Part shown: piece after piece, positions 19,733 to 25,644 of the stretch | Position numbering within the stretch: position 1 is the stretch's first letter | Layout of the letters: every line of letters begins with the position of its first letter | Source of the DNA: Methanosarcinaceae archaeon | GTDB lineage: Archaea > Halobacteriota > Methanosarcinia > Methanosarcinales > Methanosarcinaceae | Length of the DNA: 64,000 nt | NCBI GenBank assembly: GCA_023544565.1 | Contig: JAMJFS010000001.1 | Coordinates: 67,071-131,070, forward strand | Direction: 5' to 3' | Translations under genes and position numbers: made by a program | Notes under the pieces: generated by a model | The model's input: only the letters and a program-made list of their open reading frames with translations | What the model was told of the DNA's origin: nothing | Databases searched by the model: none

Positions 19733-19763
19733 GTTTGATACAATAATTAAGGATTATTTTACA

Positions 19764-19868
19764 ATTTATAACTTACAACTTATAACTTATAACTTACAAT
19801 TTATAACTTACAACTTATAACTTACAACTTATAACTTACAACTTATAACTTATAACTTACAACTTATA
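19764..19868. repeat. Tandem array of a 7-bp unit upstream of map
   Basis: Fifteen back-to-back copies of A(C/T)TTA(T/C)A, mainly alternating ACTTATA and ACTTACA. It ends 15 bases before the MetAP start codon and just before its GAGGTAA ribosome site. Each ACTTATAA resembles a TATA box. Copy number of such short units often changes by slippage. Confidence 0.9.
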
Positions 19869-19883
19869 ATTACGAGGTAACAC

Positions 19884-21897: not shown

Positions 21898-22980
21898 ATG
21901 TTATACGCTTTTGAGTTATCAGGAGAGCACGGAGAATTGCCGCGTGCAGAGGTTCTTGCATGTCTTGACATTGCGGGTGCAGTGTACAGTGAGCATGCGT
22001 TTTTCGATCAGTGTCTTGTTGTGGATATCGATGGCATTTGTGGTATTGGTGGCATTGATGAAATTGATAGCACTAATTGCAGCGCCGATATTATTGATAA
22101 AAAAATGGAATGGGTTGCAGAGCGTTTGGCATTTTCCCATCATATAGTAAAGGTCGCAAAAATATGCGACACTGATATTGATACAATTATCGAGATGGCT
22201 GAAAAGTTTGATGTCGGTAAACATATCGTTGCAGGCGAGACCTATGTTGTCCGTGCCAAACGGATACAGCACAATACTCGTATCAATGGTGCGAATCTTG
22301 AAGGCAGGGTTGGAGGCAGCATTTACAGAAAAGGGTACAGTGCAGATATGAAAAACCCTGATGTTGAGTTTCGCCTCATCCTGACCGAGCGGTGTGTGTT
22401 CGGCTCGATCGTTGCATCAATTGACCGCAGTGCATATGAGGTACGGTCGCCACAGAAAAAACCGTTCTTCTATCCGGGGGTTCTAATGCCTAGAATGGCA
22501 CGCGCACTTGTGAACTTTTCAAAAGCCGGAGAGGGTGATCTTTTTTTTGACCCGTTCTGCGGAACTGCAGGGATACTTGTAGAAGCCGGACTTGTCGGGG
22601 CAGATGTTATCGGTTTGGATGTGCAGGGAAAGATCATAGGCGGTGCGAAGATGAACCTTGAAGCGTTCTTGCCCGACTATTCACTTTTTGTAGGCGATGC
22701 ATGCAGGGTTCCACTTGTGGATGGATGTGTGGATGCGATCGTGACCGATCCGCCGTATGGCCGTTCGGCTACGATAAGAGCGGAGTCGCTTGATCACCTG
22801 TACGCGCATTCCTTTGCTGAGATGTACCGTGTGCTCAAGAGCGGGAAAATCGCTGTCGTGGTGTCCGAGCAGCCTGTGGAAGGTTTTGTCCGCGATGCCG
22901 GTTTTGTGGTGGCGGAGACATATCTCCAGAAGGTTCATAAGAGCCTTACACGGAGAATTTTGGTTTTGTTTAAGGAATGA
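21898..22980 (+). CDS. trm-G10: tRNA (guanine(10)-N2)-dimethyltransferase
   Basis: Adds one or two methyl groups to N2 of G10 in archaeal tRNA. 360 residues: an N-terminal THUMP region (about 40-170) for tRNA binding, then a Rossmann methyltransferase with the SAM motif DPFCGTAGILVEAG (about 218) and catalytic TDPPYGRSA (about 282; DPPY in place of the general NPPY). Length is normal. The last 117 codons are repeated exactly at 24447-24799, 1818 bases on. The full gene is intact, so the second copy is the remnant or the displaced original 3' end. Confidence 0.95.
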   Translation: MLYAFELSGEHGELPRAEVLACLDIAGAVYSEHAFFDQCLVVDIDGICGIGGIDEIDSTNCSADIIDKKMEWVAERLAFSHHIVKVAKICDTDIDTIIEMAEKFDVGKHIVAGETYVVRAKRIQHNTRINGANLEGRVGGSIYRKGYSADMKNPDVEFRLILTERCVFGSIVASIDRSAYEVRSPQKKPFFYPGVLMPRMARALVNFSKAGEGDLFFDPFCGTAGILVEAGLVGADVIGLDVQGKIIGGAKMNLEAFLPDYSLFVGDACRVPLVDGCVDAIVTDPPYGRSATIRAESLDHLYAHSFAEMYRVLKSGKIAVVVSEQPVEGFVRDAGFVVAETYLQKVHKSLTRRILVLFKE

Positions 22981-22981
22981 T
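22629..22981 (+). repeat. Left copy of 353-bp perfect direct repeat (3' end of trm-G10)
   Basis: Bases 22629-22981 are identical to 24447-24799; identity stops sharply at both ends. Together the copies flank about 1.47 kb holding a small gene and a toxin-antitoxin pair. Recombination between them would delete 1818 bp and leave one intact trm-G10. Confidence 0.95.
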
Positions 22982-23161
22982 CTGGGGTGCAATTGATTTT
23001 GTAATTAAGCGTTTGATAGGGTTTTGCCGAATTATAGTTCCTGATATTCCATCTATTTTTTATCTGAAAAGTGGATTTACGTAAGATGACAACGTTTGCT
23101 ATTTATACATCATCCGATATTTTTAGAAAGTATCTAAATATTACCATGAGAAGTGATTTTA

Positions 23162-23404
23162 ATGGAAATAAATAAAGATAAACAAGAAACTTTTACTCTT
23201 GTGGTATCAAGAGATGAACTCATAGAAATACAAGATGCTCTTGGATTACGATGTCTTTATTTCGATTCACTAAACAGGAAAAAAGCTTCAATCGCAAGAT
23301 CAAAATCTGTGTTAGATGATGGTGAAACAATCAAAAACGACAAACGTTTTGTTGAAGACAAAATTCGTAATATGTACGATCAAATAATCAAAGTGATTGA
23401 ATAA
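23162..23404 (+). CDS. Small hypothetical protein in the trm-G10 islet
   Basis: 80 residues from ATG 23162 (AAGTGAT upstream). Mostly helical and charged (SRDELIEIQDALGLR...). I do not recognise it. Its last ~14 codons recur, diverged, at 24269-24313, so a second copy once existed. It may be an accessory or regulatory part of the islet. Confidence 0.6.
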   Translation: MEINKDKQETFTLVVSRDELIEIQDALGLRCLYFDSLNRKKASIARSKSVLDDGETIKNDKRFVEDKIRNMYDQIIKVIE

Positions 23405-23557
23405 TAGGGTGGGGTTTTTATTATCTTATGGTTTGAAAAACTATGCAACAATTCCCTATTTAATAATAAATTCAAAAGTCTTTTTTTTCATAGAGTTCCT
23501 GCATCCGTACCATAGCCAGTTTAGGATTTATATCAATTCGTTAATATTATTGTTGAA

Positions 23558-23956
23558 TCATTTCATTTCTGCCTGGTATGGATTCAAAAACTTGAGTCCT
23601 TTTACTTTGAGGAAGTCCTTCTCATTCCTTGAAACCAAAATTGTATCTTTTATTATCGATGTTGCACAAATAAGTGCGTCCGGTAGTTTTAACTTGTAAT
23701 TTTTCCTTATTCTGATCGCTTCTTCTGCTATCGTATTGTCAATCTCAAGTGTAATGAAACTTGATAAAAACATACGGATTGATTTTTCCTCTTTTTTAGA
23801 TATGTCTGGAAATGATAGAACTTCAATTTTATTTATCAGTGAAATATAAATTTCGTCATCTAGTATTCTCTCAAAAAGAGCTAGTGCTTGCTTTTCCCCT
23901 TCCAAAAAGTAAATCAAAATATTCGTATCAATAAGATACCTATCTTTCCCACTCAT
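23558..23956 (-). CDS. vapC: PIN-domain toxin (VapC-like)
   Basis: 132 residues with the PIN RNase acidic set: Asp in LIDTNILIYF, Glu in NKIEVLSF, Asp in KLPDALICAT and Asp in SRNEKDF. VapC toxins cut tRNA or rRNA and are blocked by a partner antitoxin. The start overlaps the antitoxin gene by 17 bases, as usual for vapBC. It lies inside the repeat-bounded islet, where it may prevent loss of the segment. Confidence 0.9.
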   Translation of the reverse strand: MSGKDRYLIDTNILIYFLEGEKQALALFERILDDEIYISLINKIEVLSFPDISKKEEKSIRMFLSSFITLEIDNTIAEEAIRIRKNYKLKLPDALICATSIIKDTILVSRNEKDFLKVKGLKFLNPYQAEMK

Positions 23957-24149
23957 TTCTTATCTCTCTCTCAAATATCAAACCATCCTGTTTACTTTTC
24001 AAGAGACCGCTATATTTTAGAATATCTTTCTTACTTACGTTTTGACATTCTTCTTCGATTGATCTAAGTATCCATCCTATGATATCAGTTCTATCTTCAA
24101 ATGATAATTGCCTGATTTCATTCATTACTACTTTTACATTCACATTCAT
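23940..24149 (-). CDS. vapB: Antitoxin (VapB-like)
   Basis: 69 residues; the N-terminal part (VKVVMNEIRQLSFEDRTDIIGWILRSI) fits the helical type of antitoxin that pairs with PIN toxins. It overlaps the toxin gene downstream. AT-rich ATTATAATTATAATTATAAT at about 24172-24191 upstream is TATA-like and repetitive, and probably holds the promoter. TAG stop. Confidence 0.8.
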   Translation of the reverse strand: MNVNVKVVMNEIRQLSFEDRTDIIGWILRSIEEECQNVSKKDILKYSGLLKSKQDGLIFEREIRNEWER

Positions 24150-24446
24150 ATCCTGTGACCCCTTTTTTTAATTATAATTATAATTATAATCGATTATGAT
24201 TAAACATTTTCTGGAATAGTTTATATCCTCAATATTAAAAATATATTTCCCCATTATTTCACTGGTTCATTCGTAATATGTACGATCAAATAACCAAAGT
24301 GATGGAACAATAAGAATTGCTTTTTTACACACCGAAAACCAATAACATATTACTTCTTTCGTAAAAAAATGAACACTGTCCTGTGAAAATTATTCAATCC
24401 GAACTCATATTATCTACATGAATTTACTAAGAGTATTTGTAAAATA
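24150..24446. other. AT-rich intergenic DNA with remnant of islet gene
   Basis: Bases 24269-24313 match the 3' end of the gene at 23162 (23363-23404) with a few substitutions and one extra codon before the TAA. The rest is AT-rich without coding signal. It leads to the truncated second copy of trm-G10. Confidence 0.8.
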
Positions 24447-24799
24447 AAAGATCATAGGCGGTGCGAAGATGAACCTTGAAGCGTTCTTGCCCGACTATTC
24501 ACTTTTTGTAGGCGATGCATGCAGGGTTCCACTTGTGGATGGATGTGTGGATGCGATCGTGACCGATCCGCCGTATGGCCGTTCGGCTACGATAAGAGCG
24601 GAGTCGCTTGATCACCTGTACGCGCATTCCTTTGCTGAGATGTACCGTGTGCTCAAGAGCGGGAAAATCGCTGTCGTGGTGTCCGAGCAGCCTGTGGAAG
24701 GTTTTGTCCGCGATGCCGGTTTTGTGGTGGCGGAGACATATCTCCAGAAGGTTCATAAGAGCCTTACACGGAGAATTTTGGTTTTGTTTAAGGAATGAT
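24447..24799 (+). pseudogene. Truncated second copy of trm-G10 3' end
   Basis: Exact copy of 22629-22981, covering the catalytic TDPPYGRSA and the C-terminus but without THUMP domain, SAM motif I or start. An internal ATG at 24469 gives a 109-residue frame that cannot be a working enzyme. Lack of any difference shows a recent event or ongoing gene conversion. Confidence 0.93.
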
Positions 24800-24834
24800 G
24801 AGAGAATGAATTAAAAAAATGAGTTCGGTTTTCC

Positions 24835-25644
24835 CTAATCCTGCGGAACCAGACCTTCCAGCACTTCAGCCATAACCCTGTGCCGGATCAGATGCTCATG
24901 TATGTGCTCATGCGCCCTGCGTATTGAATAACTATCCTCTATCCACTCAATGGGCTGTGTATAGTCGACTTTTGTTAATGTTAATCCGTATGCTGCTGCT
25001 GGTTCTAATCCCTCTTCATATAATTCGGGATTTAGCATCTGTTCCAGCCATTCAATATCGCGAACTCCGCTTCCCACCATCGTAAGCGCAGTGACGAACT
25101 TACGCACCATATTCCAGAGGAAACTATTTGCCTGAACATCTATTTTTGTCAGTGCTCCGCTGACCCTGACATCAATGCGCATTACATTGCGCAATGTACT
25201 TTTGTTACCATCGGTTGTACAGAAATTTGCAAAATCATGCGTGCCGATAAGCAGTTTTGATGCAGTCCTGATCTTTGAAATGTCGTACTGCTCTCCGCTC
25301 ATGATATACCTGTAAGTACGGCTCACAGCATGGTATAGTGGATTGAAATCATCGGACACGTGTGCATGTGCCCATGCCCATATTGAGTTTGGGAGTTTTG
25401 AATTTATCACACGCGGAATTGCAAGCTCGGGTTTGTCGGTGTTGAATGCCACAACCTGTCCAAGTGCATGAACTCCGGCATCTGTTCGTCCTGCACTTTT
25501 GAAGTTTGCCTGTTTTGGAGTATCTATGATACCAAGTTCCTTCAAGGCTTCAAAAATCTTGCCTTCAATGGTCGGATCATTTGACTGGACCTGGGAACCG
25601 TGGTAATTAGTTCCGATATATGCAAGTTTTAATGCAACTCTCAT
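24835..25644 (-). CDS. truA: tRNA pseudouridine(38-40) synthase TruA
   Basis: Isomerises uridines 38-40 in the anticodon arm. 269 residues. The catalytic Asp is in SAGRTDAGVHALGQ (about residue 54); the C-terminal domain has the usual NSFLWNMVRKFV stretch. The gene is convergent with the trm-G10 remnant. TAG stop. Two tRNA modification genes thus lie on both sides of the islet. Confidence 0.95.
   Translation of the reverse strand: MRVALKLAYIGTNYHGSQVQSNDPTIEGKIFEALKELGIIDTPKQANFKSAGRTDAGVHALGQVVAFNTDKPELAIPRVINSKLPNSIWAWAHAHVSDDFNPLYHAVSRTYRYIMSGEQYDISKIRTASKLLIGTHDFANFCTTDGNKSTLRNVMRIDVRVSGALTKIDVQANSFLWNMVRKFVTALTMVGSGVRDIEWLEQMLNPELYEEGLEPAAAYGLTLTKVDYTQPIEWIEDSYSIRRAHEHIHEHLIRHRVMAEVLEGLVPQD

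What the first reader, a model, noticed from the sequence alone, without database searches (positions are those of the whole stretch)
22629..24799. Toxin-antitoxin islet bounded by a perfect 353-bp duplication of the trm-G10 3' end
Direct repeats of the tRNA methyltransferase 3' end enclose 1.47 kb with vapBC and a small gene whose own 3' end is also duplicated (diverged copy at 24269). The plan recalls elements that insert in a gene and restore its end, but 353 bp is long and no integrase is present. Recombination between repeats would excise 1818 bp; the toxin-antitoxin pair would select against this loss.
Basis: partly seen in the sequence, partly recalled or inferred. Interest (0 to 1): 0.7.

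Follow-up and report, generated by a model that had tools for sequence, protein, structure and literature searches.

The report
Toxin-antitoxin islet between gene-end copies
In what appears to be an uncultured methane-oxidising archaeon, a small toxin-antitoxin islet lies between an intact tRNA-methylase gene and a second copy of that gene's end, most likely a scar of DNA that recombined in without an integrase, and similar scars seem to occur elsewhere in the same genome.

Summary
In detail: 22629-22981 and 24447-24799 are identical over 353 bp and enclose a small gene and a vapBC-like pair; the small gene's 3' end recurs, diverged, at 24269. But the 353-bp repeat is not the border of the TA element. 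Congener G002 (ANME-3 HMMV2) has the vapBC islet behind trm-G10 with one trm 3' end; G003 has no vapBC there and one copy of the inner repeat. So vapBC is bounded by the inner 44-57-bp repeat, and the trm duplication is separate. Its new junction has a 6-bp overlap (AAAGAT) between islet sequence and trm. The plan (intact gene, small-ORF islet, stub copy of the gene end) recurs at L129, L106, L212 and perhaps L225; where flanks could be compared the native neighbour mostly stays with the stub, on evidence of uneven strength. I favour integrase-free uptake: homologous recombination in the gene end plus a microhomology join. Tandem duplication plus deletion is a close rival; loss between repeats in relatives could explain some empty sites. 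No reads, no second strain and no control genome were available.

The parts
21898..22980 (+). intact trm-G10-type THUMP methyltransferase gene (TIGR01177 family)
   Evidence: TIGR01177 E 2.4e-82, 277 bits, below its curated cut-off of 317
22629..22981 (+). 353-bp repeat, copy 1 (3' end of the intact trm-G10)
22982..23026 (.). flank after copy 1, shared with G003 (37 of 45) and G002 (35 of 38)
23153..23404 (+). small gene, 80-83 aa, no known family; in a search of 60 genomes found only here and, at another place, in G001
23363..23419 (+). inner repeat, left copy (3' end of the small gene)
23558..23956 (-). vapC-like toxin gene (PIN domain; best PDB match 7by2, E 5.7e-17)
23940..24149 (-). probable vapB-like antitoxin gene, overlapping the start of vapC
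   Evidence: assigned by position, no family match
24170..24203 (.). AT-rich repeated stretch before vapB, possible operator
   Evidence: sequence; inference only
24269..24325 (+). inner repeat, right copy: stub of the small gene's 3' end
24391..24446 (.). islet end, shared with G002 (47 of 56) and G003 (46 of 53)
24447..24452 (.). new junction: AAAGAT overlap between the islet sequence (as in G002) and trm-G10
24447..24799 (+). 353-bp repeat, copy 2: truncated trm-G10 stub
24800..24834 (.). short link to truA; similarity to the truA flank of G001 begins at 24811
24835..25644 (-). truA, neighbour of trm-G10 in relatives too

Best explanation
This is a recombination scar at a variable spot between trm-G10 and truA, not a self-moving element. 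Shown: the spot differs in content between congeners; vapBC sits between 44-57-bp copies of the small gene's end; the 353-bp copy joins the islet at a 6-bp overlap. Inferred: DNA carrying trm 3' end - small gene - vapBC recombined by homology in the trm 3' end of a chromosome where trm-G10 lay close to truA. Its far end (...AAAGAT) was joined by microhomology to AAAGAT inside the resident trm gene, either in place (homology-facilitated illegitimate recombination) or by first closing the fragment into a circle that integrated by single crossover. The result is an intact trm-G10, the islet, and a stub of the old gene end still attached to truA. Recombination between the copies could remove 1818 bp again.
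For: The 6-bp overlap with the G002 continuation: 6 or more arose in 0.17% of 200,000 random junctions. Each of the 6 congeners has one trm 3' end (G005 also has a remote 70% partial hit). Similar plan elsewhere in this genome. L129: G002, G004, G005 and G006 have one gene end and no islet nearby, G001 shares the islet, G003 gave no match to the gene; the match of the stub runs on 15 and 20 bp past the repeat into the flanks of G004 and G005, that of the intact copy does not; G002 and G006 show no such extension. L106: the flank behind the stub lies 145 bp behind the single gene end in G001. L212, mirror case at a 5' end: single copy joined to the native upstream flank over 177 bp in G004 and over 37 bp in G001 and 36 bp in G002. 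Inner vapBC repeat: the single copy of G003 has the flank of the right stub. vapB plus upstream DNA is 305/306 identical between G000 and G002, while trm is 82-89% and truA 86%: exchange between species. Islet GC 29.6% against 41.3% for the genome. Both routes are known from bacteria: PMC3240628 (abstract), PMC6382021 (passages: 3-10-bp segments).
Against: No close trm-truA allele was seen: the genes are 6.5 and 1.2 kb apart in G001 and G004, the pieces of 4.5 to 6 kb around truA that I hold of G002, G003 and G005 contain no trm, and G006 has no truA match. A repeat found in the trm-truA region or beside truA in G001, G002, G003 and G004 is missing here, so the short spacer is probably itself a deletion. 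The copies are identical, so a donor must be conspecific or conversion followed. The flank after copy 1, not after copy 2, is that of G002 and G003, which fits duplication plus deletion as well. At L106 end copies are scattered in congeners and the gene end of G003 matches the intact copy to its very end without the native flank. Empty sites may be losses. Recombination and uptake genes were not examined.
Confidence: 0.45

Rival explanations
1. Tandem duplication at the AAAGAT microhomology made a second copy of trm 3' end plus islet; a later deletion removed the second islet and all DNA up to truA.
For: The left junction is a microhomology join; copy 1 keeps the flank of G002 and G003; a spacer repeat of four congeners is missing here, so a deletion before truA is likely in any case. 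Small duplications without flanking repeats are reported in pneumococcus (PMC3784515, passage).
Against: The deletion must end one base after the stop codon of the stub (TGA 24796-24798, divergence from 24800). No second copy of 22982-24446 remains beyond the inner repeat. It does not account for the other loci.
Confidence: 0.3
2. Template switching in one replication event: synthesis jumped back from 24446 to 22629, copied 353 bp and jumped on to the truA flank.
For: Microhomology at the left junction and perfect identity.
Against: The second jump would have to fall at the stop codon.
Confidence: 0.1
3. Library or assembly artefact: a chimeric join or two strains merged.
For: Perfect 353-bp repeat in a draft of 72 contigs; no reads; library chimeras also use microhomology (recalled). 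The spacer repeat of the congeners occurs once in this genome, about 260 bp from the end of contig C31.
Against: No N in the window. An overlap of 6 bp is too short for an assembler to join on (recalled). C31 otherwise shows no match to the trm-truA region in the parts compared (1-259 and 411-1500). Gene order on both sides agrees with G001. No inverted pair of at least 80 bp and 90% within a stretch.
Confidence: 0.12
4. A small integrative element whose integrase acts from elsewhere, using the trm 3' end as attachment site.
For: The layout resembles gene-end restoration by integrases (recalled).
Against: No integrase among the three genes of the islet. G002 has the islet without the duplication. 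Repeats at the loci grouped here run from 44 to 353 bp and one is at a 5' end; the islet ORFs scanned share no family.
Confidence: 0.03

Closest known systems
Homology-facilitated illegitimate recombination (HFIR) in Acinetobacter, pneumococcus, P. stutzeri, E. coli
   Same: homologous exchange at one end and a short microhomology join at the other; no integrase (PMC3240628 abstract; PMC6382021 passages)
   Different: known from experiments in bacteria; here a natural scar in an archaeon, read from sequence only
Deletion-coupled insertions and repeat-bounded indels in the archaeon Haloquadratum walsbyi
   Same: uptake of foreign DNA, probably from close relatives, at one spot with loss of what was there; indels with one repeat copy in the other strain, read by the authors as deletions (PMC3119063 passages)
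   Different: their repeats are 4-20 bp; no gene-end stubs of 44-353 bp in the passages I saw
T6SS orphan immunity arrays and Rhs orphan 3' regions in Vibrio cholerae and others
   Same: a new module goes in behind a conserved part and the displaced 3' region stays behind; HFIR proposed (PMC5361080 passages)
   Different: there the effector gene itself is exchanged; here the gene stays whole and a stub is added, with TA or small genes between
Small variable segments flanked by direct repeats in E. coli, S. aureus and S. pyogenes
   Same: small variable segments, 10-18% flanked by direct repeats, often with empty alleles (PMC2884548 section 10)
   Different: 66-94% of those repeats are under 30 bp; here 44-353 bp, and they are gene ends
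Hotspots of gene gain without mobile elements
   Same: variable content between core genes, linked to homologous recombination (PMC5635113 abstract)
   Different: a survey of bacteria; here single joints are read
Integrative elements that restore the 3' end of their target gene (such as E. coli e14 at icd; recalled)
   Same: intact gene, insert, 3'-end copy
   Different: no integrase; a relative carries the islet without the duplication

Membership tests
Site-specific integrative element at a gene 3' end | integrase gene in the element | tested here: not met
   three genes in the islet; none matches an integrase
Site-specific integrative element at a gene 3' end | filled site has two target copies, empty site one | tested here: not met
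   for the 353-bp repeat: G002 is filled with vapBC but has one trm end
HFIR or single-crossover integration | homologous stretch at one joint | tested here: met
   353-bp identical trm 3' end
HFIR or single-crossover integration | microhomology of a few bases at the other joint | tested here: met
   AAAGAT, judged against the G002 continuation as stand-in for the unknown parent
HFIR or single-crossover integration | recipient allele without the islet (trm-G10 close to truA) | tested here: not met
   not seen in 5 of 6 congeners, G006 has no truA match; no second genome of the own species was available. I therefore say 'works like', not 'is'
HFIR or single-crossover integration | RecA/RadA dependence | not testable with these tools
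   needs experiment
VapBC type II toxin-antitoxin | PIN-domain toxin | tested here: met
VapBC type II toxin-antitoxin | upstream, overlapping small antitoxin gene | tested here: met
   23940-24149 overlaps 23558-23956; same pair in G002 and G056
VapBC type II toxin-antitoxin | antitoxin of a known VapB family | tested here: not met
   no match in Pfam, NCBIfam or PADLOC; called vapBC-like only
VapBC type II toxin-antitoxin | toxicity relieved by the partner | not testable with these tools
   needs experiment
Tandem duplication | two copies of the whole unit | tested here: not met
   only the 353 bp is doubled; an intermediate that lost the rest stays possible

The most novel reading that the evidence does not exclude
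ANME-3 archaea routinely take up small toxin-antitoxin and other small-gene islets by an integrase-free route that completes the target gene with an incoming copy of its end and leaves the old end as a stub on the native side. Gene-end stubs then mark past uptake events, and the repeats make the islets losable again.
Probability: 0.22. Interest if true: 0.65.

Novelty: new variant of a known kind. Interest (0 to 1): 0.4.

Why it matters
How toxin-antitoxin pairs and other tiny islets without mobility genes enter chromosomes is not well resolved; in Haloquadratum the mechanism of such uptake was left open (PMC3119063 passages). Stubs of neighbouring gene ends that keep the native flank would give a readable trace of single events, with direction and joint. 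If the plan is general, gene-end stubs can be used to find and date integrase-free gene uptake in uncultured archaea, and to ask whether vapBC-like pairs persist because their repeats would otherwise delete them.

Tried and rejected
Rejected: the 353-bp repeat as TA element border (G002). L204: the repeat is the shared acidic tail of two neighbouring ribosomal-protein genes (P0/P1, recalled from the sequence). Other pairs: paralogues, repeats inside one gene, dispersed repeats, or no gene end. Of 87 pairs I kept 7 (trm, small gene, L106, L129, L212, and two pairs at L225) by reading, not by a blind rule. L225 was not compared with congeners.

Led nowhere: vapC in viral contigs (64 pattern matches, no relative); small gene on plasmids (none); plasmid VapC hits, 44 records, are under 60% identity; PADLOC (none). 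G056 vapBC has no flanking gene-end repeat, so vapBC can travel without this plan. 17 of 60 genomes have some vapC match, most of them weak; only G000, G002 and G056 are close. G001 hicBA lies between 85-bp copies of a gene end, but that end is scattered in 5 of 7 genomes, so I do not count it. Paper searches gave listings only; I opened nine papers, in abstract, section or passages.

On re-checking I found that a spacer repeat of four congeners is missing here and read the Haloquadratum passages; I therefore lowered the main reading from 0.5 to 0.45 and the novel case from 0.25 to 0.22, and raised duplication plus deletion (0.27 to 0.30) and artefact (0.10 to 0.12).
Full report
Check. Positions 22629-22981 and 24447-24799 are identical over 353 bp. 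Copy 1 is the 3' end of a complete 360-aa methyltransferase gene; copy 2 starts inside the gene and encodes at most 109 aa in frame. Between them lie an 80-83-aa gene of no known family, a PIN-domain vapC-like gene and a small overlapping gene in the place of vapB. The small gene's end recurs at 24269-24325, 84% identical over 57 bp. In 135 stretches covering the 72 contigs of the own genome (14 contigs read N throughout) this was the longest of 9 direct-repeat pairs of at least 80 bp and 90% identity within a stretch, and no inverted pair met that limit. Pairs across seams, further than 20 kb apart or of lower identity are outside that count.

Where it is. Named relatives of the gene come from ANME-3 and other Methanosarcinaceae.

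Relatives. Each of the 6 congeners has one trm 3' end. In G002 the islet with vapBC follows trm-G10, bounded by the inner repeat (97% identical there), with no second trm end on the contig. In G003 there is no vapBC: trm is followed by one copy of the small gene's end, with the left flank of the left copy and the right flank of the right copy. The left and right inner copies of the window pair with the left and right copies of G002 (65 and 70 of 75). So the border of vapBC is the inner repeat; whether G003 is an empty or an emptied site cannot be told. The small gene was found only here and at another place in G001 in a search of 60 genomes; G002 and G003 keep its end. 17 of 60 genomes have a vapC match, but only G000, G002 and, at 70%, G056 a close one; vapB has 3 of 60. 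vapB with its upstream DNA is 305/306 identical between G000 and G002, vapC 385/399, while trm is 82-89% and truA 86%: recent exchange between species.

A variable spot. truA follows trm-G10 in the family too, for example in L027, L030 and L033. The stretch between holds an ABC-transporter set in G001, small ORFs in G004 and vapBC in G002; in G003 an AAA ATPase and a RloB-like gene lie beside truA, on a contig without trm. A repeat of about 75-170 bp lies in this region, or beside trm or truA, in G001, G002, G003 and G004 and elsewhere in G001 and G002; here it is missing and occurs once on another contig, C31, near its end.

The joints. Left joint of copy 2: G002 reads ...GTAAAATAAAAGATTTGATTGG, the window ...GTAAAATAAAAGATCATAGGCGG, trm ...GCAGGGAAAGATCATAGGCGG: an overlap of AAAGAT. 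Random junctions of the two sequences reach 6 or more in 0.17%; G002 stands in for the unknown parent. Right joint: identity ends one base after the stop codon (24799), and similarity to the truA flank of G001 begins at 24811. The flank after copy 1 is that of G002 and G003; that after copy 2 is not. With 0 of 353 differences the copies differ by less than 0.85% (95% bound), against 27 of 353 to G003: the duplication is young or kept alike by conversion.

Recurrence. Of 87 near repeat pairs I kept 7 by reading as 'gene end doubled around a small islet'. L129: an Fe-S gene whose last 96 bp (94%) recur behind an 86-aa ORF; G002, G004, G005 and G006 have one end and no islet nearby, G001 shares the islet, G003 gave no match to the gene; the flanks of G004 and G005 continue the stub for 15 and 20 bp, not the intact copy, those of G002 and G006 continue neither. 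L106: a PAPS-reductase-like gene whose end plus flank (347 bp, 86%) recurs behind a nucleotidyltransferase gene (of HEPN-MNT type, recalled); in G001 the flank that here follows the stub lies 145 bp behind the single gene end, but G001 has further end copies with the nucleotidyltransferase 4-5 kb on, end copies are scattered in G002, G003 and G005 too, and the gene end of G003 matches the intact copy to its end. L212, mirror image: 73 bp (97%) around the start of a prephenate dehydratase gene before an 876-bp islet with two ORFs; a single copy is joined to the native upstream flank in G004 (177 bp), G001 (37 bp) and G002 (36 bp). L225: a debranching-enzyme gene and a convergent glycosyltransferase gene, both with end copies around a 69-aa ORF, not compared. 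So at L129, L106, L212 and the inner vapBC repeat the native side is with the stub, on evidence of uneven strength; the trm case fits if truA counts as the native neighbour, not if the G002-type flank does.

Mechanism. An incoming fragment that shares only a gene end can recombine there; its other end must be joined without homology. If that join falls inside the resident gene end, the product is gene - islet - stub - native flank. Bacteria do this rarely by HFIR (PMC6382021 passages), and linear DNA can also circularise and integrate by single crossover (PMC3240628 abstract). The mirror case, repeat lengths from 44 to 353 bp and unrelated cargo fit this better than an integrase. For the 353-bp event alone, tandem duplication followed by deletion does almost as well, since the short spacer to truA looks like a deletion in any case. 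The close trm-truA allele was not seen. For the other loci, loss between repeats in relatives is an alternative to gain here.

Known or new. Small variable segments flanked by direct repeats are known in bacteria (10-18%, repeats mostly under 30 bp; PMC2884548 section 10). In the archaeon Haloquadratum, deletion-coupled insertions and indels bounded by 4-20-bp repeats are described, the first with mechanism unknown (PMC3119063 passages). HFIR has been proposed for T6SS immunity arrays and orphan Rhs ends (PMC5361080 passages). Gene-gain spots without mobile elements are common in bacteria (PMC5635113 abstract). In the listings of searches, and the nine papers opened, I saw no description of gene-end stubs of this length around TA islets in an archaeon; that is a narrow search.

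Noticed in passing
L129 6568-8062; L106 9848-12732; L212 8679-10543; L225 271-4356 (own genome): Four further loci where an intact gene and a stub copy of its end enclose a small-ORF islet.
   Followed up: partly
L077 4269-5448, 8228-8760; L108 11630-11764; L104 12700-12767: A 117-aa gene of no known family whose 3' end is scattered as stubs in 5 of 7 genomes, around hicBA in G001 and beside a hicB-like gene in G000, also beside other cargo.
   Followed up: partly
L079 261-1491 (G003): AAA ATPase and RloB-like gene upstream of truA on its contig.
   Followed up: partly
window 23957-24262: 305 of 306 bases identical to G002 although neighbouring core genes are 82-89% identical: recent exchange of vapB and its upstream region.
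   Followed up: partly
L133 255-408; L004 8229-8306; L005 8058-8130; L078 5441-5595; L079 1512-1678: A repeat present near trm or truA in four congeners, missing from that place here.
   Followed up: partly
window 19738-19883: AT-rich array of TTACAACTTATAA-like units between two genes.
   Followed up: no
window 11213, 35123, 45156, 50819: Dispersed palindromic repeats with a CCGCCTGCGGCGG-like core, similar motifs in congener sequence.
   Followed up: no
window 24326-24388: About 60 bp between the right inner stub and the shared islet end that G002 lacks in the alignment.
   Followed up: no
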